This document shows positions 479-19,658 of a DNA stretch of 64,000 nucleotides, piece after piece. The translations under genes and the position numbers were made by a program. The stretch covers positions 62,001 through 126,000 of the forward strand of contig NZ_PDEQ01000009.1 in the NCBI RefSeq assembly GCF_002554795.1, read 5' to 3'. Each line of letters starts with the position of its first letter. Within the stretch, counting starts at the first letter, position 1. The notes under the pieces were generated by a model. That model was not told where the DNA came from and ran no database searches. It saw only the letters and a list, made by a program, of their open reading frames with translations. The DNA is from Longibacter salinarum. GTDB taxonomy: Bacteria; Bacteroidota; Rhodothermia; Rhodothermales; Salinibacteraceae.

Positions 479-1327
479 ATGCTGACGACCATTCCGATCA
501 TCAACAACAAGGGAGGTGTGGGAAAGACCACCACAGCTGTGAATGTAGCTGCGGGCCTGGCCCAACGCGGGCGGCGGGTCCTCCTCGTTGATCTCGACAG
601 TCAGGGCTCGGCCTCAATTGCGCTCGGTGTGCATCACGACAACCTGCGTCCGTCCAGTGCAGACGTTCTGTTCGGACACGTGGCCATCGACGATGCCATT
701 CGGGAGACCGGCCTTGAGAATGTTGACCTGATTACCGGATCGCTGAGTCTCGCCGACGCAGGCACACGTCTGAAACTTCGGGACAACGGCCAATACCGCC
801 TTCGGAATGTGCTTTCGACCGTCAAAGACTGGTACCAAACGATCATTATCGATTGTGCACCGTCGACCTCGATTCTCTCGGTCAATGCCCTCGTCGGCGC
901 GGACGCCATCATTGTCCCCGTGGCCCCCTCCTATCTCGCGATGGAAGGGGTAATTAGCCTCGGCAAGACCGTTCGCCGGGTCCGCGAGGGAATTGGAGAG
1001 GCCGCTCCGATCCTCGGCGTCTTGCTCACGATGGTCTCGAAGGGCGACGATCGTGCAGTTGACGAGATCAATGAACTGCGGAGTCACTACGGCGGCAAAG
1101 TATTCAAGACTGAGATCCAGAACGATCCCGCCTTGAAGGTTGCACCGAGCGCGGGCGTCGATATTTTCCGATATGCCCCGGACTCGCCCGGCGCGACCGA
1201 CTACGATCAGCTGATCGACGAAATCGAGGAGCGGCTTCAGCGATACGGATCCATCTACGGAAACCTTCCCAGTCGAGCATCCACCGGTACGTACCAAGTC
1301 AGTAATGCGGGTGGCATCCGGTCGTAG
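479..1327 (+). CDS. ParA/Soj-family partition or positioning ATPase
   Basis: A 282-residue P-loop ATPase of the ParA/MinD class, which dimerises on ATP, binds DNA or membrane surfaces and positions cargo. The deviant Walker A (KGGVGKTTT, residues about 11-19), Walker A' (LLVDLDSQGS) and Walker B (IIIDCAPS) are all visible. The start at 479 puts Walker A at the usual distance from the N-terminus; ATG 443 would add 12 residues. No parB or parS-like repeat is seen nearby. It is instead followed by roadblock, GTPase and globin genes on the same strand, so a polarity or cluster-positioning role is more likely than plasmid partition. That role is inferred from context. Confidence 0.88.
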   Translation: MLTTIPIINNKGGVGKTTTAVNVAAGLAQRGRRVLLVDLDSQGSASIALGVHHDNLRPSSADVLFGHVAIDDAIRETGLENVDLITGSLSLADAGTRLKLRDNGQYRLRNVLSTVKDWYQTIIIDCAPSTSILSVNALVGADAIIVPVAPSYLAMEGVISLGKTVRRVREGIGEAAPILGVLLTMVSKGDDRAVDEINELRSHYGGKVFKTEIQNDPALKVAPSAGVDIFRYAPDSPGATDYDQLIDEIEERLQRYGSIYGNLPSRASTGTYQVSNAGGIRS

Positions 1328-1390
1328 GATCTCCACTTCGATCTCGCGCCACCTAGCCACCACGATTCATCACAGATCGACACGAGCAAT

Positions 1391-1795
1391 ATGGGAATAT
1401 TCGGTTCCCGAGACAAGGACCCCCTCCTGCAAAACGATCCCCTCGCAGAGCCCTCTGACGTGGCGGCGACGTCCGAGGATGAGCGCAACACGGAGACGAC
1501 GCGCTCCACCGACTCACTATTTTCCGAATACCACGAGCCCGACAATACTGCCGTTGACTCCGCCTCCCCAGAGCCAAAACCACTCTCCGCTGGCGACCCA
1601 CCTCGGTATTTCTGGGACGGCAACCTTCGCGTCATCGTCTGCTCGACGGAAGCGGCCGCCAACGGACAACTCGGCGACGTAAATGCGGCGCTCGACCGGG
1701 GCTGGCACCTACATCGCGTCGAGGTGCGCCACCGCCCTCGTTCGTCACGTGAATCCCGATTTCTCACATTCATTCTTGCCCAATCGGACCCGTAA
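1391..1795 (+). CDS. acidic hypothetical protein, DUF4177-like C-terminus
   Basis: A 134-residue protein. The first ~70 residues are acidic, Ser/Thr/Pro-rich and probably disordered. The last ~60 residues form a compact alternating pattern (RYFWDGNLRVIVCST, then a helix, GWHLHRVEV, FLTFILAQ). That resembles the small DUF4177 fold, whose members have an Asn-x-x-Gly-x-x-Gly-Trp turn and a final strand, but the match is weak. It starts 63 bases after the ParA gene on the same strand and may share its transcript. Function unknown; a signalling partner in the roadblock/GTPase cluster is only an inference. Confidence 0.65.
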   Translation: MGIFGSRDKDPLLQNDPLAEPSDVAATSEDERNTETTRSTDSLFSEYHEPDNTAVDSASPEPKPLSAGDPPRYFWDGNLRVIVCSTEAAANGQLGDVNAALDRGWHLHRVEVRHRPRSSRESRFLTFILAQSDP

Positions 1796-1902
1796 AACGA
1801 GTTCCATCCGTTCTCGACAGACCGCAAGCACCGACGAGCCTCCGTTCGTAGTGGACCGGATCGCGCAACACATCACACACTCATGAACTAACGACGCATC
1901 CC

Positions 1903-2292
1903 ATGTCAACCATTGAGAGCATAAACAGTGTCCTGAAAAACCTCGCAAACGCAATCCCGGGCCAGATCGACGGCACGGTCATCGCCTCGACAGACGGATT
2001 TGTGATCTCCGACACGTTGACCGGTGAAGAGGCGGAAGAAGTCGCCGCCATGGTTGCAACCACAATGGGCGTGAGCAAACGCATGTCGTTAACACTGACC
2101 GCCGGCGACGTCGAGGAAACGAGCATCAAGGGGGAAAACCGTAGCGTGTTTATGTATCGTGTCGGCGGCGAGGGGGTCCTGGCCGTTATCGCGGCGGGCG
2201 ATGCGAATGTCGGCATGATCAATCTCCGCGCACGTTCGGCCGCCGACAAAATTAAGGCGTACCTCGCCGATCCCTCGACGGCCTCGGCGTAA
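1903..2292 (+). CDS. roadblock/LC7-domain protein (MglB-like)
   Basis: A 129-residue single-domain protein with the roadblock/LC7 pattern: N-terminal helix, IDGTVIASTDGFVIS, then helix EEVAAMVATTMG, strands, and GVLAVIAAGDANVGMINLRAR. Roadblock proteins act as GTPase-activating or docking partners of small Ras-like GTPases (MglB for MglA, CvnB for CvnD). It sits 44 bases upstream of a Ras-like GTPase gene on the same strand, the arrangement expected for a GTPase/GAP pair. No membrane segment or signal peptide is visible. The family assignment is strong; GAP activity is inferred. Confidence 0.88.
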   Translation: MSTIESINSVLKNLANAIPGQIDGTVIASTDGFVISDTLTGEEAEEVAAMVATTMGVSKRMSLTLTAGDVEETSIKGENRSVFMYRVGGEGVLAVIAAGDANVGMINLRARSAADKIKAYLADPSTASA

Positions 2293-2336
2293 ACGGCCAG
2301 CCCCCACCTCTCCCCGTCTCTCGAGCCCCCGCTCCC

Positions 2337-2843
2337 ATGTCCGACCTCAAGATTGTGGTCACGGGCCCGTTTCACGCAGGCAAAACGACGTTTGTGCGCT
2401 CATTAGCCCGTGAACAGACCGTATCCACCGAAGAAGCAACCACCCTGTCGGTCGCCAAAGAGCACACGACCGTGGGTCTCGACTTCGGATGCACACGTGT
2501 CGGACGCCACTCGGTCAAGCTGTTCGGCACGCCCGGTCAGAAACGGTTTGCGTACATGTGGGACGTGCTCTCGACCGGTGCTGACGGGATCATTCTCCTG
2601 ATTCCTGCCGATCGACACGACGCGCTCGTCCAATCTTTAACCATCACGAAGCACCTCGGAAAAAAGGAGAAACGACCGCTTGCGGTCGGCATCACGCGGA
2701 TGGATTTGGCCGACAACGATCCCTTCGATCGCATCTCGCGCACGCTCGGGAAGATGACGCTTTCGATCGACCACATAGACGCGCGAGATGTCGATCAGTG
2801 TATGTCGCTGGTCCGTGCACTGGCCCACCATATCGATCCATAA
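2337..2843 (+). CDS. Ras-like small GTPase (conservon/MglA-type)
   Basis: A 168-residue P-loop GTPase. The G1 motif is GPFHAGKTT (residues about 10-18). The switch region reads TTVGLDFG, G3 is FGTPGQKRF in place of the eukaryotic DTAGQ, and the G4 position is TRMD instead of N/TKxD. The GTPGQ form is typical of bacterial GTPases paired with roadblock proteins in actinobacterial conservons and related clusters. The Arg in G4 may alter guanine specificity. It follows the roadblock gene directly and precedes a protoglobin, so a gas- or redox-linked input to the switch is plausible but inferred. Confidence 0.88.
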   Translation: MSDLKIVVTGPFHAGKTTFVRSLAREQTVSTEEATTLSVAKEHTTVGLDFGCTRVGRHSVKLFGTPGQKRFAYMWDVLSTGADGIILLIPADRHDALVQSLTITKHLGKKEKRPLAVGITRMDLADNDPFDRISRTLGKMTLSIDHIDARDVDQCMSLVRALAHHIDP

Positions 2844-2979
2844 GCGGCACGTCCGTTCCGCACCCCGAGTCCCGCGCACGGGTTGCACCTCCGTTCCTCC
2901 CCTCCCTCCCAACGTTCCGCGCATCCGTCATTCGGGCCGCGGACCGCTACCTCCTCATCAACGAACGAATCTCTCTCCA

Positions 2980-3543
2980 ATGGAAAACTACCAAGAACGA
3001 AAAAGCTGGTCGGTAAAACAGAAAAACATCCATGCCGAGCTGGCCGACCTGATGAATCTGAGCGACACAGACAAAGAGCTTCTGTCTAACCTCCAGAGCG
3101 AGGCGGAAGAGCAGACCAATGCACTCACCGACGATTTTTACGAACGCCTTCTTGCCCACGAAAACACGAAAGAGTATCTTGAGGGCGAGGATATGGACGA
3201 CCGGCACGCGATGATCGCCGATTGGTTCGTCGACCTGTTTAGCGGGAGCTATGACGAAGAGTACGTCGCCCACCGACTCAACATCGGCCACATTCACGTT
3301 CGAATTGGCCTTCCCGTCCGCTACCCACTCTCGATGATCGACGTGATTTCGAGGCACGGCGAGAACGTCGTCGCCAAGAGCAGCGATCCGGAACAGGCAA
3401 AACGTGCGTTCCAGAAGGCATTGTCTCTCGATATAGCCGTCTTCAATCAGGCCTATGAAGACCGCCAACTCAAACATCTTGCCGACCTCGTTGGTGGCGA
3501 GCGGCTGGCCCGTCGGCTTCTAACCGGTGGGGCAGGCGGGTGA
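2980..3543 (+). CDS. protoglobin-domain haem sensor protein
   Basis: A 187-residue protein consisting of a protoglobin/globin-coupled-sensor domain. Residues ~20-170 are helical and contain GHIHVRIGLPVRYPLSMI (103-120), matching the F-helix signature H-x-x-IGL-x-x-x-Y around the proximal haem ligand; His106 is the predicted ligand. No output domain such as a kinase, MCP or GGDEF follows, so it is a stand-alone sensor. The frame is open further upstream, but the ATG at 2980 begins just before globin-like sequence. Its position after the GTPase and between two roadblock-type genes suggests that O2, NO or CO binding modulates the switch. That link is inference. Confidence 0.88.
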   Translation: MENYQERKSWSVKQKNIHAELADLMNLSDTDKELLSNLQSEAEEQTNALTDDFYERLLAHENTKEYLEGEDMDDRHAMIADWFVDLFSGSYDEEYVAHRLNIGHIHVRIGLPVRYPLSMIDVISRHGENVVAKSSDPEQAKRAFQKALSLDIAVFNQAYEDRQLKHLADLVGGERLARRLLTGGAGG

Positions 3544-3630
3544 ACGCCATGTCTTTCATCACTCGCTTCACCGCGACGCGAATGCATCTCTGCGCTCGCC
3601 TTCTCGATTCCACGTATAGCATGAATGACC

Positions 3631-4002
3631 ATGGCTACGATCCGAGAATCTCTACAAAAGGCGATGCACATCGACGGTGCGATCGGCGTTGCGCTGGTCA
3701 ATTTCGAATCCGGAGTTTGCCTTGGGACAATGGGGGGAGGATCTCTGGACATGGAACTGGCCGGAGCCGCCACGACGGACGTCGTTCGCTCCAAGATCAA
3801 CCTTATCGATCAATTGGCGCTCGATGATCAGATTGAAGACATCCTCATCACGCTGGGCAACCAGTATCACCTCATTCACTCCTTTCCCAGACACGAATCC
3901 GTCTTTTCCTATCTCATTCTCAACCGAGAAAAAGCAACTCTTCCGCTTGCTCGCACGCACCTTCGGTCCATCGGCCGTTCCCTGAGCCTCGACGAATCAT
4001 GA
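3631..4002 (+). CDS. second roadblock/LC7-like protein
   Basis: A 123-residue protein with a divergent roadblock-like layout: N-terminal helix (IRESLQKAM), IDGAIGVALVNFESGVCLG, a central helix, then ILITLGNQYHLIHSF and VFSYLILNREKATLPLART. It is more distant from the canonical domain than the 1903-2292 product, so the two probably bind different partners or form a heterodimer. ATG 3625 is in frame two codons earlier and is an equally possible start. Same strand as the GTPase and globin genes. Role inferred from fold resemblance and context. Confidence 0.7.
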   Translation: MATIRESLQKAMHIDGAIGVALVNFESGVCLGTMGGGSLDMELAGAATTDVVRSKINLIDQLALDDQIEDILITLGNQYHLIHSFPRHESVFSYLILNREKATLPLARTHLRSIGRSLSLDES

Positions 4003-4117
4003 GGACGTGTTGTCCTCGGCCGGGCGTTGCCGCCCCAGAAGCACAGGAGGCGGAAACACCCTTGAGGTTCAGGTCGCCCCCCTGCTGCACCTTGTCTATC
4101 TAATCGGATTGATTTCC

Positions 4118-4669
4118 ATGTCTTCCCACCGCAAGCGCCTCAATATCAAGAATCGCATTGAGGAGTCCGACATCCCGATCGAAGGTCGCGAACCGTTGAA
4201 GAGATTGTGTCAGATGGTCTTCGACGACGACTGTGGCGAACTGAAAAACATTCGCGTCGCCTGGGAGGTCCCAGATCAGAATGCCGGGCGCAGTGCCCCG
4301 CGCGACGACTGGCGGATCTACGAATGCGACGTGCTTGGCCTCCGGTTTTCCGTTCCCTGCGGCACCCCCATTCCCATGATTCTGGCGGAAGAGCACACGC
4401 CGGACGGGGACGTGTTAAGTGTCGTCTACCGGTTCGTGCACCCCGATTTTCTGACCAACACGGATGCCCTTCTAGATAATCTCGTCCAGCATCTCCAGGA
4501 CGAGATTCAGGACCGGCTCGCATCCCTTTCGACCACCTACAACCTGGTTACGGCGCTGCACGACATGGAGACGCTTCCGATCGAAACGTCGGCGCCCGAA
4601 TCAGTTGCCCGCACGAACGACCGGGGCTACGAGCGCATCGATGAAAGTCCACTAGAAGGGAAGGCCTAA
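4118..4669 (+). CDS. hypothetical protein at end of GTPase/globin cluster
   Basis: A 183-residue soluble protein of unknown family. It has a charged N-terminus, a mixed alpha/beta middle (IRVAWEVPDQ, DWRIYECDVLGLRFSVPCG) and a C-terminal helix-rich part (LLDNLVQHLQDEIQDRLASL). The ATG at 4118 is chosen because the open frame upstream (from 4007) encodes non-conserved-looking sequence and overlaps the end of the previous gene's spacer. No catalytic motif is recognised. It is the last + strand gene before the tRNA and could be co-transcribed with the roadblock/GTPase genes. Confidence 0.6.
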   Translation: MSSHRKRLNIKNRIEESDIPIEGREPLKRLCQMVFDDDCGELKNIRVAWEVPDQNAGRSAPRDDWRIYECDVLGLRFSVPCGTPIPMILAEEHTPDGDVLSVVYRFVHPDFLTNTDALLDNLVQHLQDEIQDRLASLSTTYNLVTALHDMETLPIETSAPESVARTNDRGYERIDESPLEGKA

Positions 4670-4790: not shown

Positions 4791-4864
4791 GGGCCCGTAG
4801 CTCAGTTGGTTAGAGCAGTCGACTCATAATCGATCGGTCGTGGGTTCAAGTCCCGCCGGGCCCA
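4791..4864 (+). tRNA. tRNA-Ile2 (CAU anticodon), island attachment site
   Basis: A full cloverleaf can be drawn. The acceptor stem GGGCCCG pairs with CGGGCCC. The D arm is GCTC/GAGC, the anticodon arm is GTCGA-CTCATAA-TCGAT, the T arm is GTGGG-TTCAAGT-CCCGC, and the discriminator is A. The anticodon is CAU. The loop and flanks (GACTCATAATCG, then GGTCG) match the pattern of bacterial tRNA-Ile2, whose C34 is converted to lysidine by TilS, better than elongator or initiator tRNA-Met. CCA is not fully encoded. The 3' half (4822-4865) is repeated at 23992-24035, marking it as the integration target of the island downstream. Confidence 0.95.
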
Positions 4865-4865
4865 C
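4822..4865 (+). repeat. attL: 44-base direct repeat inside tRNA-Ile2
   Basis: The left copy of the 44-base direct repeat, from the anticodon loop (ACTCATAAT...) through the discriminator (CCCAC). Identity with the right copy at 23992-24035 is complete by eye; the bases just outside differ on both sides (g/t before, c/t after). The tRNA stays intact on this side, as usual when an element restores the 3' end of the gene it enters. Confidence 0.92.
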
Positions 4866-4885
4866 CCTCATGTTGGAGCAAAAAG

Positions 4886-4930
4886 AAGCCCCTGAACGCC
4901 GGAGACGGCGGGTTCAGGGGCTTTATTATT
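4886..4930 (+). terminator. rho-independent terminator after tRNA-Ile2
   Basis: A 12-base stem, AAGCCCCTGAAC (4886-4897) with GTTCAGGGGCTT (4912-4923), encloses a GC-rich loop and is followed by TTATTATTTT. It lies 22 bases after the tRNA, inside the island side of attL, so the element brings its own terminator for the tRNA. Confidence 0.85.
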
Positions 4931-5247
4931 TTGCTAAACCGAGGCCGCAGACGGGCCGCGAAAGCAGGATTATGCAGGCGATTGCAGAATTGTGCGTAGG
5001 ATGGGGGTAAAAGGGATTGGAGCGTTTAACAGGTGCTCATAACGGGGAAGCTGAGGTGCGGAGGGCGAGAAAACGCCAACCGGAGTGCTGACCGACAAAA
5101 TAACAACGCCGAACGGAGTCGTTGCCACTTCCGACCAGCGAAGACGAACTCGCCTACGAGACCTCGATCGATGACGGCACGAGCCCTCCGTCAACTCTAG
5201 CGATGTGTTATGCCCGCCTTTCACAGTACACATCACAGTGGAGGAGA
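4931..5247. other. intergenic, island left margin
   Basis: No gene recognised. This stretch lies between the tRNA terminator and the 3' end of the minus-strand nuclease-TPR gene. A plus-strand open frame beginning at 5122 runs antisense into that gene and has no motif. Nothing else is seen. Confidence 0.4.
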
Positions 5248-7293
5248 CTATCCCTCATCAGGAAAAAGCCCCAATTCATCGTTGATTGCTTTCAATACGG
5301 AGGTGATCGTACTATTGTGGTGATCCTCCGGGTTACAGTAGGTAGTTGCCTCATTCAGCTTCTCCTTCAAGACAGACAATCGGCCTCCGATCCATCCATA
5401 TTCAGCACTTGCCTCCCGTAGTGCAAGCAGCGCCATAAACAGGATAATCTCTGTGAGCCTCCCTGATGTCTCCTCGTTGGAGAGGTCACTGGTAAAGTAA
5501 TGGGCAAATGGTCGGCTGGCGGCACTTACGGCTTCCTCGACTAGAGCGTAGATTTTTTGCTGCAGTGAGACGAGGACATCAAGGTTCTCTGTATTCTCGT
5601 CAACCGAAAATTCCATCCCGAGTCCGAAAGGAACGGCAAGAAAGGTTCTGAGGGCCTGAAGTACCCGTTCTTCTCTTGGTGCAGGATAGCCAAGGTGATA
5701 GAGAGCATGGTCTTCATTCCAGTATTTTGCTATCGGCACGCTTCGCCTGAACTGGGTATACTGAGGAAAAAACCAAAGGGCACGAGTGCATTGATCAATT
5801 GAAAATCCTGAGGCTCGGAAGGATACCTCTTCTATTCCGGCAAGCTTTAGACACTCATCTATCAGATCCCAAGCCCTCTCGACGTTTTCTTCCTCGTTCT
5901 CGAGACGTATCAGCCTAACGCGGGCGTCATAAAACCTTGGATCTCTTTCGAGGCGCCTCTCCCAGAACTGGCGAGCATCGCTTGTAATTTCCGCATTTGT
6001 TTCAGTGAGCTGTGCCAGCACCTCGGACTTCAGGTGTGTTAATCCTTCGTGTCCGGGTTGATGAGTTAGCCCTCTGTTAATCCATTCCAGAGAGTTTTGA
6101 AATCTCTCAGCCCGATAGTTTGATAGGCCAAGCCAATACCAAGTTAATGGATTATGCGTAATCCAGTCTGGATTATGATTTACACCCCGCTCAAGAAATG
6201 TCGCTGCTTGATCGGGTTTGTCAAAATCGATAAGAAGACTGATACCCTTGCTAACTAATGCCTCTGGCTTTGTTGGCTCCAATTCAAGTGCGCGGTTGAA
6301 GCACTCCATCTCCGCTTCGTGATCTCCGACCTGGTGGTACGCACTTCCTAAGTTTTTTAGGAGCGATGAACGCTCGGATTTCTCACGGGCCTCCTCATAT
6401 GCCTCAACAGCTTCTTCGGCCTTGCCCAAGGCACTGAGAGCATTTCCTAGATTATAGAAGTCGGCCCAGGTCGGATCGGACTTTTCCTCGATAACCTTTC
6501 GGAACAGTTTGCAGCCCTCCTCAATAGCCTCCCTATTGTTTTCTGCGATTCCTTTTTCCGTAAGGGTACACGCTCGACTCAAACGGAGCATTTCCCTATC
6601 ATGTCCTAGCCGGGAGGCCCGGTTGAGACTCGCGATTGCTTCATCATATCGGTGAAGTTGGTACTGAGCGACCGCGCGAAAGTACCAACCCTGACTAGAT
6701 TCAGGATGCTGTCCAACAAATTGCTTCAACCGACTTGCTGCACGCTCCGGCTCCTCTGACTCTAGTAGCTCAAGTGCCGTTGAAAGCTCTTCTTCCAGAT
6801 CTTCATCAGTTCCTATGTTGAAGAGAAGCTCCGGAGTGCGTCCCGACACCTCTACGGAAAGATACTTCTGAGCAAGATCAGGGTGTGCCTCTTCCAGTTG
6901 AAGGCGCAGCCATTCCCTGGAGAATACAACGAGGTCCCACCCATACTTCTCGCAAAGCTCGTCCGTCAACTGATCTCTGTCGATTCCACGGGCTTCCTGA
7001 GACGTTACGAAAACCAAAGTTTCGAACTCATAATCACGCTCATTCAGTCGTTCCGCGTCTTCCCGCAGTTTTGTCTTCCAATCGTTTCGGAGGCTAAATT
7101 GAAAAAAGCAGACGTTGCCATGTCGTCCTCTTCCCCGTCGCGGATATTCCTCCGCATCTCTACCTCCATCTTGGGGTTCAATCGGCTCTATCTCCCTGTA
7201 ACCGTTTCTGTACAGTAGCTCGGTGGCTAGCCGTTCGAAGGACCGGGGATCAAGCTCATTGTCTATAGTCCAAAGTATCTTGTTAAATGACAT
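5248..7293 (-). CDS. PD-(D/E)XK-like nuclease domain fused to TPR repeats
   Basis: A 681-residue protein. Residues ~1-150 resemble an Mrr/restriction-endonuclease-like domain: FERLATELLYRNGY, then GGRDAEEY, a strand with FFQFSLRNDWKTKL (QxS in the usual QxK place), and YEFETLVFVTSQEARG. Residues ~170-470 are a run of TPR-type helical pairs (WYFRAVAQYQLHRYDEAIAS, FYNLGNALSALGKAEEAVEA, LLKNLGSAYHQVGDHEAEME). Residues ~480-681 are helical and unassigned. Nuclease-TPR architectures are common among candidate phage-defence proteins, where the TPR part senses or recruits. It is the first island gene beside the tRNA and stands alone. The substitution in the nuclease motif leaves activity open. Confidence 0.75.
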   Translation of the reverse strand: MSFNKILWTIDNELDPRSFERLATELLYRNGYREIEPIEPQDGGRDAEEYPRRGRGRHGNVCFFQFSLRNDWKTKLREDAERLNERDYEFETLVFVTSQEARGIDRDQLTDELCEKYGWDLVVFSREWLRLQLEEAHPDLAQKYLSVEVSGRTPELLFNIGTDEDLEEELSTALELLESEEPERAASRLKQFVGQHPESSQGWYFRAVAQYQLHRYDEAIASLNRASRLGHDREMLRLSRACTLTEKGIAENNREAIEEGCKLFRKVIEEKSDPTWADFYNLGNALSALGKAEEAVEAYEEAREKSERSSLLKNLGSAYHQVGDHEAEMECFNRALELEPTKPEALVSKGISLLIDFDKPDQAATFLERGVNHNPDWITHNPLTWYWLGLSNYRAERFQNSLEWINRGLTHQPGHEGLTHLKSEVLAQLTETNAEITSDARQFWERRLERDPRFYDARVRLIRLENEEENVERAWDLIDECLKLAGIEEVSFRASGFSIDQCTRALWFFPQYTQFRRSVPIAKYWNEDHALYHLGYPAPREERVLQALRTFLAVPFGLGMEFSVDENTENLDVLVSLQQKIYALVEEAVSAASRPFAHYFTSDLSNEETSGRLTEIILFMALLALREASAEYGWIGGRLSVLKEKLNEATTYCNPEDHHNSTITSVLKAINDELGLFPDEG

Positions 7294-7527
7294 GAGTAAT
7301 ATTTTCTGATAAACTGAGCCTCCACATGAAGACTCACTTATAGATAGACCTATATCAAATGCTTGGTATCGAAATCTACTCCCTGTGTGTCGATCGGAGG
7401 ATTACGGAGACTTCCGTTATGCATAACGGAGGAACTCTGCCGCGACGGGCAGGAAAAGGTATAGCGCCAGCAGCCGAAACGCTACCGCCGGAAATTAGCC
7501 GCTGCCCGTCGTCGGCAGCAGTGCGGG

Positions 7528-7860
7528 TTATGCTGCTGAATGATTGGATTGCGTACCACCCCGGAGCATCTTCACGACAATGGCTACAGAGGAAATCACG
7601 ACGGCCAAAATCAGCGGAAGTCCAAGGAGCACAGCCCACCAATACGGAAGGATCGTCACAAAGTAGACGAACGACTCGGGCAGTGCGCGAATGATCGACT
7701 GTATGCCCGTCACCTCGACTTCTCCGTTGGCGATCAGATCCCCCCAACCCAGTCCGTACAGAAGAATCAACAAGGCTGAGAGGCAAATACCAAAGGTTCT
7801 CGCGAAGAACTTCCAAAGGCTCCGCCATCGGCTCGCCTTCTCATCTGTTTCTCCGGCCAT
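7528..7860 (-). CDS. small two-TM membrane protein
   Basis: A 110-residue protein with a charged N-terminus and two hydrophobic segments (about residues 25-41, LSALLILLYGLGW, and 68-95, a long stretch through LGLPLILAVVISSVAIVVK), predicted to span the membrane. No family recognised. Directly upstream of its start (7898-8020) lie several copies of a TATCC(G/A)GA-type repeat that could regulate it. It shares the minus strand with the nuclease-TPR gene about 230 bases downstream. A holin-like or abortive-infection effector role is conceivable but unsupported. Confidence 0.6.
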   Translation of the reverse strand: MAGETDEKASRWRSLWKFFARTFGICLSALLILLYGLGWGDLIANGEVEVTGIQSIIRALPESFVYFVTILPYWWAVLLGLPLILAVVISSVAIVVKMLRGGTQSNHSAA

Positions 7861-7897
7861 AACACACTTTCACGGTGGAGCAGCATAACATTATAAT

Positions 7898-8032
7898 TAT
7901 CCGGAAGGCTTCGGGATAGCAAAAACTATCCGGACTAAATCGGTCCTCAGCGACGCTGATGCGACATTAGCGCAATGAGTGCTATCCAGAAGGCTTATGG
8001 AATTACGCACACTATCTAGACAATGTCCAGAA
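7898..8032. repeat. iteron-like cluster of TATCC(G/A)GA motifs
   Basis: Five related short motifs occur within ~135 bases: TATCCGGA (7898), CTATCCGGA (7926), CTATCCAGA (7982), CTATCTAGA (8012) and TGTCCAGA (8024). The first and third continue as AAGGCTT, giving a longer repeat. They lie between the 3' end of the integrase gene and the start of the small membrane protein, a place where integrase arm sites, excisionase sites or repressor operators are often found. Confidence 0.5.
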
Positions 8033-8088
8033 GCGAGTTTTCCTCTGTGTCTCGACATAAATAGTGGCTGGCCGCATCCTCCTGCCCA

Positions 8089-9234
8089 CTACTTGTCCCC
8101 AAACACCTCCTCCATCACGTTCTTCGACGCGCTCGGTATCAGATGAGCGTACTTCTGCGTGACCTCCGTCGAGCTGTGACCGAGGACTTTGCTTACCACA
8201 GCTATGGAGGCTTTACGCTGCACCATCCATGAAGCAAACGTGTGGCGTAAGGAGTGAAAGCGAAAGCGGTCAGAGAGCCCAGCCTCCCGGACGTAGTTTT
8301 TGAACTGCTTGGACATGTAGGTCGCATTGAGTTTGTCTCCCCGGTAGCCGTGGAAGACGTATGCGTCGCCTGTCCCTTCATGATTCGCCTCCAGACGCTC
8401 GAGAACGCGCTCTGCTCGGCCGACCACCGGAACGCTGCGCTCGTGGCCGCTCTTCGTTCTGAAGCCATCCTCAGCACCAGAGGCATCCACGTTTCGGACG
8501 GTGATGTATCCCGTCTCCAGATCCACGTCGTGCCAACGTAGGTGAACGATTTCGCCGGCACGGAGTCCGGTGTGCACGGCGATTTCTACCACGTCTTTCA
8601 GCCAGACGATCTGACCTTCCTGGACTTCCCCCTTCTCGCGCTTTGCCTCGTAGTCTCGCTGGATTTCCTCAAGAATGGCGTCGACCTGTGTCTCCGTCAG
8701 AAACTCCGGGACTCGCTTTCCGGGCCTCGGCTTGAGGACGTCGTTGATCGGGTTGTACTCGATGTGCCCCTCTTCTTCTGCCCAGTTGAAGAAGGTACGG
8801 AGGTGCCGGTAGCGATAGGCTCTCGTACTCTCCCGTACGTCGCCATCCTGCACGACGCTGTCTACCTGGTCGGCCGTGACGTGGCTCAGTTTTAACCCGA
8901 CCGGGAGAACCAGGAGAAGCGTATTCATCGCCGACCGATACGCCTTGATCGTCGCGGGCCGGAGCCTCTGGCGCGTCTCCATGAACAGGCTGACCGCCTG
9001 CTCGACGGTCGGATTGTCCGTTCCTGTTGTGCGGTTTGGATTCCATGGATCAAGCTCACCCGAGGCCACCTCCTCCTCGAGCTTGCGTGCCTTCTTCTCT
9101 GCCACCCTCTTCCGCGTCGTACCCAGGGGAAAGGACTTCCGGGCCGGGTCCTTCTGCGGATTGTAGAAGTAGGCGAAGTACCGGTTGTCGATCTTCCGTA
9201 TGGACTGTAAACGGGTCTGCGTGGCTACGCTCAT
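8089..9234 (-). CDS. tyrosine recombinase / phage-type integrase
   Basis: A 381-residue site-specific recombinase. The N-terminal ~60 residues look like an arm-binding domain (RYFAYFYNPQKDPARKSFPL). Residues ~75-165 form the SAM-like core-binding domain. The catalytic set is complete: Arg225 (HTGLRAGE), Lys261 in the beta-hairpin, His327 and Arg330 (HSLRHTF), His353 (LGHSS) and nucleophile Tyr362 (KYAHL). It is the best candidate for inserting the island at tRNA-Ile2 by cutting within the 44-base att core, although it lies 3.2 kb from the tRNA end. A second, unrelated-looking recombinase is encoded in the same island. Confidence 0.93.
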   Translation of the reverse strand: MSVATQTRLQSIRKIDNRYFAYFYNPQKDPARKSFPLGTTRKRVAEKKARKLEEEVASGELDPWNPNRTTGTDNPTVEQAVSLFMETRQRLRPATIKAYRSAMNTLLLVLPVGLKLSHVTADQVDSVVQDGDVRESTRAYRYRHLRTFFNWAEEEGHIEYNPINDVLKPRPGKRVPEFLTETQVDAILEEIQRDYEAKREKGEVQEGQIVWLKDVVEIAVHTGLRAGEIVHLRWHDVDLETGYITVRNVDASGAEDGFRTKSGHERSVPVVGRAERVLERLEANHEGTGDAYVFHGYRGDKLNATYMSKQFKNYVREAGLSDRFRFHSLRHTFASWMVQRKASIAVVSKVLGHSSTEVTQKYAHLIPSASKNVMEEVFGDK

Positions 9235-9317
9235 GGTTAAATGCTTGAGAGGGCTATGAGTGTGGAGTCATGTGATTGAGCTACACCACACGCTAAGCTG
9301 ATTTCGGCAATTAAAAA

Positions 9318-9352
9318 GAAAACCCCTTCCGTAGTCGTCGGAGGGGTTTTGT
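9318..9352. terminator. bidirectional terminator hairpin
   Basis: AAAACCCCTTCCG pairs with CGGAGGGGTTTT (stem 9319-9331 with 9339-9350). A-rich sequence lies on the left and T-rich on the right, so it could stop transcription from either direction. It sits upstream of both the leftward integrase and the rightward Rep gene, insulating the two modules. Confidence 0.75.
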
Positions 9353-9643
9353 CTTGCAGAACGCCCATTGAAGCCACTCAGGGCGTCTCACATCGAAAGA
9401 TGGTCCTACCGTCCCAGCGCCATCCCACTTGGGACGGTCCCCTAACTGTAACGGACCCGTCTCTTTTGGCAGAGGAAGGGGCGGATCAAATTGTTCGGAG
9501 AATATCCCCGAGGTTGTCTAACGAGCGAAGAACGCTCAACCCTTGCCCACATCGGGCCTTGCCGGTCATGGCAGCCAGAGCGCTGCATGCGTGTGCGCGG
9601 AGTCACGCTTTGATGTCCCGGTATCCGCTGACATACCCTCCCA
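9353..9643. other. Rep upstream region with inverted repeat
   Basis: No convincing gene; a 103-codon plus frame (9349-9660) has no motif and overlaps the Rep start. The stretch contains an inverted repeat, ACCGTCCCA (9408-9416) facing TGGGACGGT (9430-9438), related to the palindromes at 12079 and 12129. This could be a replication origin or regulatory site for the Rep gene downstream. Confidence 0.4.
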
Positions 9644-10747
9644 ATGAACGCCCCCTATGATGCACATGAACTACCTCACGCTTGTCCGCGCGCTACGCTC
9701 AGGAAATTCGACAAAATAGACCCCAACACGGGTGAAGTAAATCCCGGTACCGTATGGACTCGCTGTGGAACAAAAGGCTGTCCGGAATGCGGGCCCTGGC
9801 TGCGACGATGCCACTTTGCCCACAACATGCGCCTACTTCATGAACACGAGGCGCGGTTCGGGCTGACGCTTTCTATCCGTCCGGGGTACTTCGATGACAC
9901 TTTTAACCATCGCCTGTGGCTGCCGCACCTTGCAGATGTCCATACATACCTTATCGACAAGTTCAGGCGCCTCTGCGCCCCATTTATCTTTTTCCGCTAC
10001 CTCGAGTGGGACAGCGAGCAGGACACGGATGGCGAGCATGGGAGCAGGGACAAAACGATCCCACATTACCACTACGTCATGGCTGCCAAACCAAAGGAGC
10101 CTAGCAAAGGCTCCTTTCCGGAACTCGCCGAGAAGTATTTCGCGAGGAAGGGTGCCGGTTGCAGTGCCTGTTTGGACACGTTGACATCTTTAGAGTCACT
10201 CCAGAATTGGGTCGGTTACTGCGCGAAAACACTAACTCGCCCCTCCAGACGTACAAACCTGGCACCTCCCAAAACCAGATGGTACAGTGCGAGCCAAGGG
10301 TTTGGCTTCAACAGCACTGAACAGGTCGCTCTTCGCTCCGATGTGGCTCGCGAAAACGCCGGCGACGACGCTTTCTGTCTCGATAAACACCTCGACCGCG
10401 TGATCCATCGTCAACTCGCTAAGAAGGAAGGGGAAGCCATCCGACTTCCCGATGGGCGGGAAGGCATTCTTCTGAGAAGCGACCATGTTCAATCAGAAGT
10501 GTGCATCGACGGAAGTGTGGAGTGGTTCTCCAATCAGGAACTCGTTACAGAGGATCTCGACATTCCTCCCGTGATGCACTTTCATCCCCCAGAGCGGACG
10601 TCGGGGGACATCTTCAACCAGCGGCTCGATAGCGACCAGCCAGACGACGAAAAGCCAACTGCGTTTACTCCAGGTGCAAAAGCTCACAAGTCTCGCTTTA
10701 TCCTTCGCAATGATAATAGAGAGATTGTCTACGAGCGGGAACTGTAA
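9644..10747 (+). CDS. HUH-family replication initiator (rolling-circle Rep)
   Basis: A 367-residue protein with the three HUH-endonuclease motifs in order. Motif 1 is GLTLSIRPG (residues 73-81), motif 2 is HYHYVM with His141 and His143 as metal ligands, and motif 3 is WVGYCAKTL with candidate nucleophile Tyr192 and Lys195. An upstream Cys cluster (C41, C46, C49, C56) fits a zinc site, as in many single-stranded-DNA phage and plasmid Reps. Such enzymes nick one strand at an origin and stay covalently attached through the tyrosine. The single Tyr and Y-x-x-K spacing resemble Microviridae VP4 and plasmid Reps rather than IS91 Y2 transposases. It is followed by a phage-spike-like gene. Confidence 0.82.
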   Translation: MNAPYDAHELPHACPRATLRKFDKIDPNTGEVNPGTVWTRCGTKGCPECGPWLRRCHFAHNMRLLHEHEARFGLTLSIRPGYFDDTFNHRLWLPHLADVHTYLIDKFRRLCAPFIFFRYLEWDSEQDTDGEHGSRDKTIPHYHYVMAAKPKEPSKGSFPELAEKYFARKGAGCSACLDTLTSLESLQNWVGYCAKTLTRPSRRTNLAPPKTRWYSASQGFGFNSTEQVALRSDVARENAGDDAFCLDKHLDRVIHRQLAKKEGEAIRLPDGREGILLRSDHVQSEVCIDGSVEWFSNQELVTEDLDIPPVMHFHPPERTSGDIFNQRLDSDQPDDEKPTAFTPGAKAHKSRFILRNDNREIVYEREL

Positions 10748-10817
10748 TATAGAACAACTCCGGGGGAGGCGGTGCGTCCCAGCAGGAGCGACAACGCTCG
10801 GCGCGTACGAGCGCGAC

Positions 10818-12158
10818 ATGCGAATGGAGGAAGGCCGGATTGTATCCGTGCACCCCGACAAAGGGTGGTGCAAGGTGCAAACCGCCAGTGGCCGCCAGCT
10901 CCAGAAGGTGCGCCTGACCTCTCCCGGCATGTCCAACGCCGGGCGTGGGTTCCGCATCACGCCCCGATCGAATACGATGTGTGTGGTCCTGTACGACGCA
11001 CGCTCGCCCTACGATCGGGCCTTCCTGGTTGGCACGACGCCCGACGAGGCTCCGGACGAATCGATGGGCGAGTGGGGTGCCCCGGGCGACCTAGAGTACA
11101 CGATGGAGCACGGCGGCCACTGGCTCGGCACGCAGACGGGCCTGACCGATTTCATGGCCTCCCCGTGGGCACGCCTGACCCTGCTCCCATCCACGCAGAC
11201 CGCGCGGCTTACAACCCGCAACCATGAGCGCCTCTACTCCCCATTCAGCCACGATCGGCTGATCCAAGACGACGAAGCGGAGGTCAGCTTTCGGGAGCTG
11301 ATGGTGAACAGCCGTTTCCTCTACCGAGACGGCGATGCGGCGCCCAACATCATCTGGACGCTCGGGAATCAGACGGACTCGGACAAAGTGAGCCCGCTAA
11401 ACCCGAAGTCGAAGCACCTTTCTTTTTTTGTTGTCGAGAACCGCGATCCGGACGACGGAAGCACGGTCACGCACCGCTTCCAAGAAGGGATCGGCGCCGC
11501 GGACGGCCGGATGCGCTACACCTTGATGCAGGACCTGGAGCAGTCGATCGGCTTCGAGGAAGTGGTGGGCTGGGATCAGGGCATCATCCACAGCTTCGCC
11601 ATCGAGACGGAGGACGTCACCCACGAACGCCGCTGGGGCTTCTTCACCGAGGGCACGCTCGCGCACGAGGAGCACATCGAGATGGGCGAGGATGTCACCT
11701 TCGACCACAAGCTCGGCAACCGCGAAGGCGTCGTCTCAGAGACGCTCTGGAAACGCGCAGGCGTCACCGTCACCGAACGCATTGGCGATTTCGAGAAGAC
11801 GGCCTACGAGCTGGATGTGGCGCAGGACGACGAGTCCAAGATGACGGCCCGCATCGAGCCCACCGGCCGGATCGAGATCACGAACCCGACCTGGACGATC
11901 GACATCGAGAAAGGCTCGAAGGCCACGATCACGAATGGCGACACGACCTTCCTGATCGACGGCGAGGACATCTTCGTCGGCGGCCCGGACGGCTCGGAAA
12001 TGATGGCCTTGGGCGACACGCTGAAGAAGCTCCTTGACCGGACGCTTCCGACTTGTGGAGAAGTGGCCCTGCGAAAAACCGTCCCAGCTGGGATGAACGA
12101 CCACGACGATTTTCCGAATCGCACAAATCCGACCGTCCCAGCTGGGATGGTTTACTGA
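10818..12158 (+). CDS. phage spike / baseplate OB-fold-like protein
   Basis: A 446-residue protein. Residues ~1-75 (EEGRIVSVHPDKGWCKVQ ... YDRAFLVGTTP) follow the OB-fold of phage baseplate-V/gp45-type spikes. The middle is unassigned. The end (GRIEITNPTWTIDIEKGSKA ... FVGGPDGSEMMALGDTLKKLL) resembles a spike's beta-prism followed by the common xLGDxLxxLL tail. The start at 10818 is chosen because it begins the OB-like sequence; the frame is open back into the Rep gene. The last 30 codons carry two copies of a TCCCAGCTGGGA palindrome, so the true C-terminus may have been altered by repeat insertion. No capsid, tail tube or packaging gene is near, so this is a fragment or a satellite-type particle component. 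Confidence 0.6.
   Translation: MRMEEGRIVSVHPDKGWCKVQTASGRQLQKVRLTSPGMSNAGRGFRITPRSNTMCVVLYDARSPYDRAFLVGTTPDEAPDESMGEWGAPGDLEYTMEHGGHWLGTQTGLTDFMASPWARLTLLPSTQTARLTTRNHERLYSPFSHDRLIQDDEAEVSFRELMVNSRFLYRDGDAAPNIIWTLGNQTDSDKVSPLNPKSKHLSFFVVENRDPDDGSTVTHRFQEGIGAADGRMRYTLMQDLEQSIGFEEVVGWDQGIIHSFAIETEDVTHERRWGFFTEGTLAHEEHIEMGEDVTFDHKLGNREGVVSETLWKRAGVTVTERIGDFEKTAYELDVAQDDESKMTARIEPTGRIEITNPTWTIDIEKGSKATITNGDTTFLIDGEDIFVGGPDGSEMMALGDTLKKLLDRTLPTCGEVALRKTVPAGMNDHDDFPNRTNPTVPAGMVY
12075..12146. repeat. two copies of a TCCCAGCTGGGA-centred palindrome
   Basis: CCGTCCCAGCTGGGATG occurs at about 12079-12096 and again at about 12129-12146. The core, TCCCAGCTGGGA, is a perfect 12-base palindrome. A related split version (ACCGTCCCA...TGGGACGGT) is at 9408-9438, and AGCTGGGACGG occurs at 15650-15660. 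The two copies lie inside the 3' end of the spike-like gene and read as the same peptide (VPAGM) in frame. Confidence 0.75.
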
Positions 12159-12294
12159 ACAACGAATGACGGGCACCGGGAAAACCCGCAAAAATCCGAC
12201 GGAAGGGGGCACCATAGGCATGAACGGAGCCGTGCTGACCGAATCCTCAGCGCGGCTCCACCCTGTTCTCTGACATCTTGAAACCCCTTCCTCT

Positions 12295-12825
12295 ATGCCA
12301 TTCCCTAACTGGCTACCCCCATCCCTCTGGCTTCGTGCCCACCGCCTTCGCCAGACCTACAACCTATCCGGTGACTCGACCATCGAAGACGTCGTCCGGG
12401 CGATCGGTCGTATGTCCACACGCGACATGAAGTCCTGCCTGAAGATCTTCACCTCCTTGCCGTACAAGCAGAGGCAGAGGATCCTATCCGACGGACACCG
12501 TCACGTCGTCGGACGGGCGGTTGCGACGCGGCTGGCGCGGCTGTACCACGGACGCACCTGCACCGAAGAGCAGGCCGCAGCCTTCCTTGCGATGCTCACG
12601 GAGGGCATGTCTCTGCCCGGCACCGATCTGGATCTTCCCCAAGAGCTTCGGGACGCCGTCCCGGCCGTCCTCGTGTACAAGGGCCGCACCCCGTATATCG
12701 CCCTTCTGGATGGCGAAGGGTCGGTCCTCGACGTGCTTCCCTTCACACTGAAAGGCCTCCCTGAAAAGCACCATCGCCGCCTGGAGCGGCGCCTCCCCAT
12801 CAACTTAGCATCCATGGGGCTGTAA
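12295..12825 (+). CDS. hypothetical protein in Rep/spike module
   Basis: A 176-residue basic, soluble protein with no recognised motif. It has an N-terminal helical stretch (LWLRAHRLRQTYNL), a repeat-like helical core and a short beta segment (LRDAVPAVLVYKGRTPYIAL, then LDGEGSVLDVLPF). It is on the same strand as the Rep and spike genes and is closed by a terminator at 12865, so it probably ends the same transcription unit. Function unknown. Confidence 0.6.
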   Translation: MPFPNWLPPSLWLRAHRLRQTYNLSGDSTIEDVVRAIGRMSTRDMKSCLKIFTSLPYKQRQRILSDGHRHVVGRAVATRLARLYHGRTCTEEQAAAFLAMLTEGMSLPGTDLDLPQELRDAVPAVLVYKGRTPYIALLDGEGSVLDVLPFTLKGLPEKHHRRLERRLPINLASMGL

Positions 12826-12864
12826 GCACCGTTCCTACTAACACTACAGTTCCTGAAAACAGAA

Positions 12865-12900
12865 AAGGTGGCCCTGCGCAATGGCGGGGCCACCTTCTTG
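12865..12900 (+). terminator. rho-independent terminator
   Basis: AAGGTGGCCC (12865-12874) pairs with GGGCCACCTT (12887-12896), followed by CTTGTTGT. It lies 40 bases after the hypothetical gene and closes the Rep/spike/hypothetical unit. Confidence 0.85.
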
Positions 12901-13270
12901 TTGTCGATCACAGAATACTCCAGTTGACGAGACCGGAGGAGAAGACTGTGCCTTCGTGTTTCTGCAATCAAGTTCAAAACACAACACAAGGGCTTACAAG
13001 CACACCAACCATTTGATCCCCCTTACCTGATTCCCGCATCCCCCCTGCCTCGTACCCCCGGAAGCATTCACCCGGGGAAGGAAGCCATTGACCGCTCCTT
13101 ACAGCGGGAAGCGCCCGAGCCTCATCATCCATGGCCTAAAGAGACCGGGACAGCTTCCACACGCTGTACGATCATTCGAACGCGCATATGTTCATGATAT
13201 GTGTAATACTGCGTGTGCCTTATCTTGCACCGCACGTACTCGTTCACCGGCCACAGTGACGGCTCCCGAT
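12901..13270. other. spacer before exonuclease gene
   Basis: The plus frame of the exonuclease is open from 13088, but residues before ~13256 do not look like the family. No other gene is seen. The start of the exonuclease is therefore uncertain within this stretch. Confidence 0.35.
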
Positions 13271-13927
13271 ATGGTTTGTGTAGCCTGGGATATCGAAACC
13301 TGCCCGCAGCCCCTCTCTGCCCTCACGGATACCCAGAAAGAACGCTACGAGACGGAGATGAGGCAGAGCGAGCGAAAGAAGCCCGACCTGGACCACGAGG
13401 ACCGCTGCCGCCTGGTCCGGAGCACGCACCCGCTGCTGGGCTGGATCTGCTGCATCAGCGCCGTGAGCGGGACGCTGGACGGCCAGGTAAACGATCCCGT
13501 GAGCTGGACCGCGGCAACAGAAGACGACGAGGTGGACCTGTTCCTGGACTTCTGGAGCACCGTTGCCGGCTTCTCCCGCGGCGTCACGTGGGTGACGTTC
13601 AACGGCAAGCGTTTCGACGTCCCCTTCCTCCTAGCCCGCTCGGCCCGACGCGATGTATCACCCACGCGGCGCGACCTGACGGACACGTATCCCTACAACA
13701 ACCGGCCGCACACGGACCTGTGCAACCTGTGGCCGGCCTCGTACAGCCTGGCTGATCTCTGCGAGCATCTTTACGTCGACAGCCCGAAAGACGGCTTTGA
13801 CGGAAGCAAGGTAGCCGATGCGGTCGAGGAGGGCCGGATCGAACAGATGCAGGAGTACTGCGAACGGGACGTAGTGGCCACGCTTAAGTGCGCACAGGCG
13901 GCACGAGCGGTACTTAGGCTTGACTAA
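13271..13927 (+). CDS. 3'-5' exonuclease, PolB-exonuclease-like (DnaQ fold)
   Basis: A 218-residue DEDDy-type exonuclease resembling the predicted PolB-like exonuclease family (DNA_pol_B_exo2). The motifs are ExoI WDIET (Asp7, Glu9), ExoII TFNGKRFDVPFL (Asp in FD) and ExoIII YCERDVVAT (Tyr and Asp four residues apart). These acidic residues bind the two catalytic metals. ATG 13271 places ExoI near the N-terminus; upstream GTG 13256 or ATG 13199 is possible. Phages and mobile elements use such enzymes for DNA processing or recombination. It is separated from the Rep unit by a terminator, so it probably has its own promoter. Confidence 0.8.
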   Translation: MVCVAWDIETCPQPLSALTDTQKERYETEMRQSERKKPDLDHEDRCRLVRSTHPLLGWICCISAVSGTLDGQVNDPVSWTAATEDDEVDLFLDFWSTVAGFSRGVTWVTFNGKRFDVPFLLARSARRDVSPTRRDLTDTYPYNNRPHTDLCNLWPASYSLADLCEHLYVDSPKDGFDGSKVADAVEEGRIEQMQEYCERDVVATLKCAQAARAVLRLD

Positions 13928-14207
13928 CCTTCGATCACACGTAGGCATGACACCGTCTGACCGAGTGCCATTAAGTCCTTCCGTCACAGAAGCCGACCGG
14001 GAACGTAATGGCCCTAATTACGACAGCTGTGCCGATACACTACCTTAGGCTAATTAATGAACGGAACTGTACGGCCATCAAAGCTCAACACAGTTTACGC
14101 TTGGCGACACATGACGTGCATGTTACCTGGTCTCGTGGGTCGGGAATTTCCCGGACTGCTGCCATGAGCGCACCTAGTCGCCCCCACATCTTACGCTGAC
14201 AATACAC

Positions 14208-14750
14208 CTACTCTGTTATGTCGACCACCGCATCCATCTCTTTATCAACCGCCGAGCTAACATCAAGCACATAGCGTCCTATCTTCATGCGAACCGTTTC
14301 AGCATCAACGATCTTCTTTACTGTTTCCGGTTTGAGCATGATTGCATTTTGTTCTCCAACTCCCGGACCCCGCGTCTCTGTACCAGCTTGTACAACCTTT
14401 CCTTCATGTCTTTCACCGTCCACCAAAAAATAGGCTTTCTCCACATTTAGAAGTGCCCATGTACTTGATCTTGTCGAAAGGACAATCGACCTGGTGCCAT
14501 CGTTGTGGAAGATAGATACTGAGGCATTACGTATGACAGGTTTTGCCTGCTCCTCTACGACAACATCAACGGGCTTCGTCTGAACGATCCGTTCCCCGGT
14601 AAACTCATCCGTTTTATTTTGTAGAAACTCTACCTCTGGTGGGTCTGGAGGAATTACCGATACCTGGGCCAGAGACGGCGTTTCAGCAATTAGAAGGATC
14701 AGAAAGAACATTATGGCGATACGAGGCGCCATGTAGATCGGTACGCGCAT
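14208..14750 (-). CDS. secreted hypothetical protein
   Basis: A 180-residue protein with a clear Sec signal peptide (basic start, MAPRIAIMFFLILLIAE, cleavage after SLAQ near residue 29). The mature part is beta-rich (VRNASVSIFHNDGTRSIVLS-like pattern, then YFLVDGERHEGK) and ends in an acidic segment. No family recognised. It is on the minus strand, apparently alone. Island cargo of unknown role, probably periplasmic. Confidence 0.65.
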   Translation of the reverse strand: MRVPIYMAPRIAIMFFLILLIAETPSLAQVSVIPPDPPEVEFLQNKTDEFTGERIVQTKPVDVVVEEQAKPVIRNASVSIFHNDGTRSIVLSTRSSTWALLNVEKAYFLVDGERHEGKVVQAGTETRGPGVGEQNAIMLKPETVKKIVDAETVRMKIGRYVLDVSSAVDKEMDAVVDITE

Positions 14751-14851
14751 TTGAAAACGACGGTTATTAACGAAATAAAGTGTGCAAGACCGAGGCCCTG
14801 TTACACGTGGATTTCCCTACTCACGTATTAAGGTTGTAAAGCCTGTTCCCC

Positions 14852-15445
14852 TTACTCATTCGTTGTGGTATTCGCGTCGACTGAACGAAGCCGAACCGCG
14901 GTTCCCACGCCAACCATAAGAAGCATCGATCGACCACTGGAGATCTCGCTGTATTTGAAATCAATCGCGATGATCGCATTTGCGCCCAAATCGTGGGCTT
15001 CTGACTGCATTTCCTCTAAAACGGTCTCCTTCGCTTCGGAGAAGGCATTTTGGATCGTCTCACTTCGCCCACCTACGATATCGCGAGCAACAGTAAAAAC
15101 ATCTTTGAATAGGTTCAGACCGATGGCAACCTCTGCAGTCACTATTCCGAGCCGACGCTCAACTTGACGGTCAGGGAGCACGGCCTCGGTAGTAACCATA
15201 AGGGAGGGGGTACTGACAGTCTCAATGTTCCGGTGACTGTCTTGAAGCCGCTCCTCGCGACGAGATTGATGACGCTGTACTGCGTCCGGAACGACCGTCT
15301 CAAGAGGTCGGAACCGTCTCGTGGATCCGTCTGCCGGCCGACAGGGGGTTTTCCGACCGAGTTTTAACTGACCAAGGAGGTTGACGAGTTCATCAACGGT
15401 ATAAGGGCCTTCGACAGAAGACCGAGGCTTAACTTCGTATTTCAT
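14852..15445 (-). CDS. GYF_2-like domain fused to YbjQ/UPF0145 domain
   Basis: A 197-residue two-domain protein. Residues 1-50 (YEVKPRSSVEGPYTVDELVN ... CRPADGS) match the GYF_2-type N-terminal motif found in many Bacteroidota proteins. Residues ~80-190 match the YbjQ/UPF0145 pattern (TTEAVLPDRQVERRLGIVTA; GLNLFKDVFTVARDIVGGRS; EEMQSEAHDLGANAIIAIDF). YbjQ-like proteins form pentameric rings and have been linked to metal binding, but their function is unclear. No signal peptide is present. The fusion is unusual and its island location suggests accessory function. Confidence 0.8.
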   Translation of the reverse strand: MKYEVKPRSSVEGPYTVDELVNLLGQLKLGRKTPCRPADGSTRRFRPLETVVPDAVQRHQSRREERLQDSHRNIETVSTPSLMVTTEAVLPDRQVERRLGIVTAEVAIGLNLFKDVFTVARDIVGGRSETIQNAFSEAKETVLEEMQSEAHDLGANAIIAIDFKYSEISSGRSMLLMVGVGTAVRLRSVDANTTTNE

Positions 15446-16170: not shown

Positions 16171-16215
16171 CCAACCCCTACCATCGCCAAATCCCTTCCA
16201 TTCACTACCCTCACC

Positions 16216-16548: not shown

Positions 16549-16568
16549 GGGGATGCGCGTGCTGCCCT

Positions 16569-17639: not shown

Positions 17640-17708
17640 ACGTTGATGGATTCGCCAGGATATCGAGCTTACAGTCGCTCTCAGGGAATGCTTTTACCGC
17701 ATCACTTT

Positions 17709-18437: not shown

Positions 18438-18544
18438 ACCGCCTTATGGAATCAAATAAATGACAACGGGCAGACCGGCCCACGGCGCCTCTTAAAAGAG
18501 TCATATCGACGCCTTTCTCGGAGCCCGCTAAACTTGCAGTAACG

Positions 18545-19501: not shown

Positions 19502-19658
19502 AGCGGCGTTTTTTAACTTGGGAGGAAGACATTTCCCAGCAGGGGCCCGACCTGTATTCTTACGCACAACCACATCGGCCTGATGAGGTGGCAAACCGAT
19601 TTAGGCACGCAGCGCAATATTTCGATCGATCAACCTGCTCACGCGATAAATTCTCAGT

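What the first reader, a model, noticed from the sequence alone, without database searches (positions are those of the whole stretch)
479..4669. ParA-roadblock-GTPase-protoglobin-roadblock gene cluster
A small GTPase with the GTPGQ G3 box is paired with a canonical roadblock protein, and a stand-alone protoglobin (His106) sits between it and a second roadblock-like gene, all on one strand with a ParA upstream. It looks like a conservon or MglAB switch wired to a gas or redox sensor and a positioning ATPase. I know of no named system with this exact set.
Basis: inference. Interest (0 to 1): 0.7.

Follow-up and report, generated by a model that had tools for sequence, protein, structure and literature searches.

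The report
Globin-linked bacterial small-GTPase switch
A haem protein of the kind bacteria use to sense gases is encoded, in several unrelated groups of bacteria, next to a Ras-like molecular switch and its partner protein, which suggests an unnamed system that lets oxygen or a similar gas set the switch.

Summary
A stand-alone protoglobin subfamily with its own C-terminal tail occurs in 18 of 400 sampled Chloroflexota (two matches weak or partial) and 4 of 394 genomes of the window's phylum. Of 26 subfamily genes, 19 lie within 3 kb of a roadblock gene (0.15 expected); 0 of 5 other protoglobins in the same genomes do. Arrangements differ: roadblock-globin-PATAN-GTPase (Roseiflexus), PATAN-GTPase-roadblock-globin (Herpetosiphon), roadblock-GTPase-globin (window), and a classical TVPGQ MglA set in Chloroherpeton. 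The window's GTPase is MglA-like with the GTPGQ box; it is not a conservon. ParA, orf134 and the second roadblock-like gene form a separate local set, into which the globin module is nested here and in one relative. Best reading: a haem gas/redox sensor acting on a roadblock/GTPase switch through its tail. Genomic linkage is shown; ligand, binding, GTPase effect and output are inferred. I found no paper describing it; the nearest precedent is the fused globin-roadblock protein HGbRL.

The parts
479..1327 (+). ParA/MinD-like P-loop ATPase (KGGVGKT deviant Walker A); local, not part of the cross-phylum module
   Evidence: AAA_31 E 1.3e-48; best relative is the ParA of the G016 globin cluster, 67% identity
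   Evidence: no Pfam/NCBIfam hit; homologues next to ParA genes in L026, L030, L024, L037
1903..2292 (+). RB1, MglB-like roadblock protein with the DG pair of MglBs coupled to group 2-5 MglA
   Evidence: Robl_LC7 E 3.9e-17; profile matches roadblock structures 7f8m, CvnB5 3leq and MglB; D31-G32 conserved
2337..2843 (+). MglA-family small GTPase: G1 GPFHAGKT, G2 TT without Arg finger, G3 GTPGQ, G4 TRMD, G5-like DAR
   Evidence: motif rules from PMC4316618
2980..3543 (+). stand-alone protoglobin with Tyr54 (B10), His106 (F8) and a conserved C-terminal tail DLVGGERLARRLLTG
   Evidence: PF11563 E 1.1e-30; model matches 2w31 and 5ohe; tail and haem-site residues across 27 homologues
3631..4002 (+). 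RB2, second, remote roadblock-like protein
   Evidence: profile against PDB: 7 of 8 weak hits are roadblock proteins; alpha-beta-beta-alpha-beta-beta-beta-alpha model of low confidence; family occurs widely without the globin
4118..4669 (+). orf183, unknown protein, same strand; no homologue in the other loci held

Best explanation
The protoglobin is a diatomic-gas or redox sensor (Tyr-B10/His-F8 haem) that acts on the MglB-like roadblock protein encoded beside it, probably through its conserved C-terminal tail, and so sets the nucleotide state of the partner MglA-like GTPase. The GTPase then drives an output: a PATAN/DUF4388 protein in Chloroflexota, possibly the ParA/orf134/RB2 set in this family. 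Surface motility or cell polarity is the likeliest output class. Shown: the proteins, their conserved haem and GTPase motifs, and their recurrent linkage. Inferred: haem binding, ligand, physical contact, direction of the signal, output.
For: Linkage in at least five arrangements over two phyla; 19/26 against 0.15 expected and 0/5 control protoglobins. In Herpetosiphon-type loci the GTPase and roadblock genes overlap by 8 bases and the globin follows 15-16 bases later, so an operon is likely. One locus has roadblock-globin without a GTPase (L026) and two have roadblock-GTPase without a globin (L027, L028), which points to the roadblock protein as the globin's direct partner. In G016 both Pfam roadblock genes sit beside a protoglobin. 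The globin is paired with GTPGQ GTPases in most loci and with a TVPGQ MglA in L067/L068, so it is not tied to one inherited operon. The unlinked paralogue L085 has lost the F8 His. The nearest solved folds are sensor globins GsGCS, AfGcHK and HemAT. A globin fused to a roadblock domain is known (PMC4476040).
Against: No biochemistry. Six of 26 subfamily globins have no roadblock gene on the same contig, and most of those keep the haem residues, so some may work alone. The Herpetosiphon loci are near-copies and do not count as independent. The partner varies and the module is rare (2 of 114 genomes of the order). Chloroherpeton has no T2SSE/PilB-type ATPase, so type IV pili cannot be the output everywhere. 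Operon structure in the window itself is untested: gaps are 44-136 bases, and the scans show no promoter or terminator in them.
Confidence: 0.6

Rival explanations
1. The globin is an enzyme or scavenger (NO dioxygenase, peroxidase or ligand buffer) that shares an operon with a GTPase module without regulating it.
For: Protoglobins can do such chemistry in vitro (title and abstract of PMC4020757). Several subfamily members stand alone.
Against: Recurrent pairing with roadblock/GTPase genes in different orders and phyla is not expected of a housekeeping scavenger; other protoglobins of the same genomes are never there. The conserved tail beyond the globin domain suggests a binding partner.
Confidence: 0.2
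2. The globin reads haem availability or redox state of the iron rather than a gas, but still acts on the switch.
For: The closest sensor globins include AfGcHK, which responds to the iron oxidation and ligand state (own knowledge; structural match).
Against: Nothing here separates the ligands; F8 His and B10 Tyr fit O2, NO or CO sensing equally.
Confidence: 0.12
3. The window cluster is a chance or island-driven neighbourhood; the seven genes do not work together.
For: The block is rare in the order and next to a tRNA-inserted island. ParA/orf134/RB2 is a separate set.
Against: ParA-orf134-RB1-globin-RB2 recurs in G016; ParA, RB1, globin and RB2 are 62-70% identical between the two. The cluster lies outside the island's repeats.
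Confidence: 0.08

Closest known systems
MglA/MglB GTPase-GAP module (Myxococcus, Thermus), MglA groups 2-5 of Wuichet and Sogaard-Andersen 2014
   Same: small single-domain GTPase encoded with a roadblock partner; GTPGQ box, Thr instead of the Arg finger, DG pair in the roadblock protein; PATAN genes nearby in some members
   Different: a stand-alone protoglobin is a regular member of the gene set; G4 of the window's GTPase is TRMD, not [NT]KxD
Actinobacterial conservon (CvnABCD)
   Same: roadblock (CvnB5 is among the best structural matches of RB1) plus a GTPGQ GTPase in one operon with a sensor
   Different: sensor is a soluble globin, not a CvnA kinase; no CvnC; not Actinobacteria
HGbRL of Methylacidiphilum (globin fused to Roadblock/LC7)
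   Same: a globin coupled to a roadblock domain, proposed to relay ligand binding
   Different: F-type globin with swapped helices, fused, single genus, in an operon with a methyltransferase rather than a GTPase; here an S-family protoglobin as a separate gene
Globin-coupled sensors and sensor single-domain globins (GsGCS, AfGcHK, HemAT, Tlr1989)
   Same: same globin fold and haem-site residues
   Different: unlike the coupled sensors it has no attached transmitter domain; ends in a short conserved tail instead

Membership tests
MglA family, groups 2-5 | GTPGQ in G3 (group 1 has TVPGQ) | tested here: met
   LFGTPGQ at residues 62-68, in all linked GTPases except L067/L068, which have TVPGQ
MglA family, groups 2-5 | Thr in place of the G2 Arg finger | tested here: met
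   HTTVGLD in the window; RTL in L067/L068
MglA family, groups 2-5 | [NT]KxD in G4 (groups 1, 4, 5 only) | tested here: not met
   TRMD in the window, NKQD or TKQD in Chloroflexota; groups 2 and 3 also deviate and carry DAR in G5, as here. So the window's GTPase is filed as MglA family by motifs, without assignment to one group.
MglA family, groups 2-5 | coupled to an MglB homologue | tested here: met
   RB1 44 bases upstream
MglB | single Robl_LC7 domain with the DG pair of group 2-5 partners | tested here: met
MglB | GAP activity on the partner GTPase | not testable with these tools
   needs purified proteins
Conservon | adjacent CvnA-type histidine kinase | tested here: not met
   no kinase among the cluster genes
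Conservon | CvnC (DUF742) gene | tested here: not met
   orf134 and orf183 hit no family over cut-off
Protoglobin / sensor single-domain globin | protoglobin fold with proximal His F8 and no attached transmitter domain | tested here: met
   PF11563 E 1.1e-30; His106 and Tyr54 conserved; 187 aa
Protoglobin / sensor single-domain globin | haem and gas binding | not testable with these tools
   needs reconstitution and spectra
HGbRL-type globin-roadblock | F-type globin fused to Roadblock/LC7 in one chain | tested here: not met
   separate genes and S-family protoglobin
Chromosome/plasmid ParAB | ParB gene beside ParA | tested here: not met
   the neighbour orf134 has no ParB or other family hit
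Roadblock (for RB2) | roadblock fold | tested here: inconclusive
   weak profile and fold matches, nearly all to roadblock proteins; model pLDDT 51

The most novel reading that the evidence does not exclude
A widespread, undescribed oxygen- or NO-gated Ras-like GTPase system, in which a detached sensor globin controls a roadblock regulator in trans and sets surface motility or polarity of gliding filamentous bacteria.
Probability: 0.35. Interest if true: 0.85.

Novelty: new variant of a known kind. Interest (0 to 1): 0.62.

Why it matters
What tells bacterial Ras-like switches when to fire is known for few of them, and the genes behind gliding in Chloroflexi had not been identified when the Herpetosiphon genome was described (PMC3368417). 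A soluble haem sensor encoded with the switch in Herpetosiphon, Roseiflexus and Chloroherpeton gives a direct, testable input: a gas controlling a small GTPase through a roadblock protein. It would also give a role to a class of single-domain sensor globins that lack a known partner.

Tried and rejected
Conservon: rejected, no kinase or CvnC. Plasmid-borne module: no match for the globin in the plasmid collection. One operon including ParA as the ancestral unit: rejected, ParA is absent from the cross-phylum loci. Profile comparison RB2 against RB1 gave nothing, as may be expected with so few sequences. RB2 structure from one sequence gave a poor model. Gene relatives from whole-genome loci were not given to the structure predictor because its rule names other sources. 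Type IV pili as the universal output: rejected for Chloroherpeton. The neighbourhood clustering merged PATAN and roadblock proteins, because a PATAN-roadblock fusion exists; Pfam scans of three examples set the labels used here, and the other proteins at the same position were labelled by similarity.

Full report
Observation. The ORFs were read directly (the ParA frame starts at 479) and scanned against Pfam and NCBIfam. Seven genes run in one direction from 479 to 4669: ParA, orf134, RB1, GTPase, protoglobin, RB2, orf183. Gaps between the genes are 44 to about 136 bases. A consensus scan shows no promoter-like and no + strand terminator-like site in the gaps, which fits one transcript but does not show it.

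The proteins. RB1 matches Robl_LC7 (E 3.9e-17) and, as a profile, the solved roadblock proteins 7f8m, CvnB5 and MglB. The GTPase has GPFHAGKT, a Thr-Thr G2 without the Arg finger, GTPGQ, TRMD and DAR; by the rules in PMC4316618 this is the MglA type of groups 2-5. The protoglobin (PF11563 E 1.1e-30) keeps Tyr54 at B10 and His106 at F8. Its model, from four sequences (mean pLDDT 77), matches GsGCS, AfGcHK and HemAT and shows one more short helix at residues 174-182, after the canonical domain. RB2 is a remote roadblock protein: 7 of 8 weak profile hits in the PDB are roadblock chains, and a low-confidence single-sequence model has the roadblock order of elements with mostly roadblock matches.

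Conservation. A profile of the protoglobin (A1) was run over the order (2 of 114 genomes), the phylum (4 of 394), Chloroflexota (18 of 400, of which one match is weak and one partial) and the order of G120 (2 of 98). Strong matches score 186 bits or more, the next best 56, so this is a distinct subfamily. A tree separates it from the five other protoglobins of the same genomes with full support. Its mark is the stretch HV[RKQ][IV]GLPVRYP followed by the tail FNQAYE...Q...L....G.E.LAR (with single exceptions, such as the divergent L085), absent from the five others.

Neighbourhoods. Roseiflexus and relatives: roadblock, globin, DUF4388 (PATAN) protein, GTPase. Herpetosiphon type (six genomes): DUF4388, GTPase, roadblock, globin, with an 8-base overlap of GTPase and roadblock genes and a gap of 15-16 bases before the globin. 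G845: two GTPase-globin pairs in tandem. The window's family (Salinibacteraceae by my guess, not shown): the window, and G016 with two copies, one roadblock-GTPase-globin and one ParA-orf134-roadblock-globin-RB2 without GTPase. G120 and G195: roadblock, TVPGQ MglA, roadblock-like, DUF4388-roadblock fusion, unknown, globin. G576 is taken as Herpetosiphon aurantiacus, since its contig 1 holds the locus and its published chromosome has the same 6,346,587 bases. G120 is taken as Chloroherpeton thalassium, since its contig has the published 3,293,456 bases. Of 26 subfamily genes in 20 genomes, 19 lie within 3 kb of a roadblock gene; 0.15 are expected from the number of roadblock genes; none of the five other protoglobins does. 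The near-copies among Herpetosiphon genomes make the P-value of that call too small to take literally, but at least five separate arrangements remain.

Two modules in the window. ParA, orf134 and RB2 have relatives close together in the same family of bacteria without any globin (L024, L030, L037). In the window and in G016 the globin module sits between orf134 and RB2. A divergent gene for a CI/S24-type repressor lies upstream of ParA in both. The ParA link is therefore local and should not be read as part of the conserved sensor module.

Mechanism. The constant pair over the loci is roadblock plus globin; the GTPase is nearly always present and of two types. I therefore propose that the globin acts on the roadblock protein, and that the tail is the contact. 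Haem binding, ligand and effect on GTP turnover are inference. Output is open: DUF4388/PATAN proteins in Chloroflexota carry weak winged-helix matches, PATAN proteins of cyanobacteria bind PilB (PMC9090330), the window genome has two T2SSE-type ATPases, and Chloroherpeton has none.

Known work. No paper in the held library has protoglobin with roadblock. 'Globin' with 'MglB' gives only the HGbRL paper and one unrelated method paper. HGbRL is a fused F-type globin and roadblock protein of Methylacidiphilum. Subscription journals are mostly not held, so absence of a description is not proof of novelty.

Noticed in passing
window 4791-24036: A 19.2-kb island inserted at the tRNA-Met(cat) gene: a perfect 44-base copy of the tRNA 3' half lies at 23992-24035, and an integrase-like ORF at 8089-9234 (-). 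The cluster lies outside it.
   Followed up: partly
L023:9304-10041 (-), start codon at window 41; L026:12737-13483 (+): A repressor with CI-like HTH and S24 peptidase domains is divergent to ParA in both globin clusters of the family.
   Followed up: partly
L024, L030, L037: A ParA-orf134 pair near RB2-type roadblock genes recurs in the family without a globin; orf134 keeps an N-terminal FGSRxxDPLL motif in three of the loci.
   Followed up: partly
L085:8674-9423 (-): A solitary member of the globin subfamily has lost the F8 His (Phe in its place) and should not bind haem in the usual way.
   Followed up: no
L067:9558-10274 (-): A fusion of DUF4388/PATAN and roadblock domains in Chloroherpeton, next to a TVPGQ MglA.
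   Followed up: no
L075:6403-7767 (+): Two subfamily protoglobins in tandem without roadblock or GTPase nearby.
   Followed up: no
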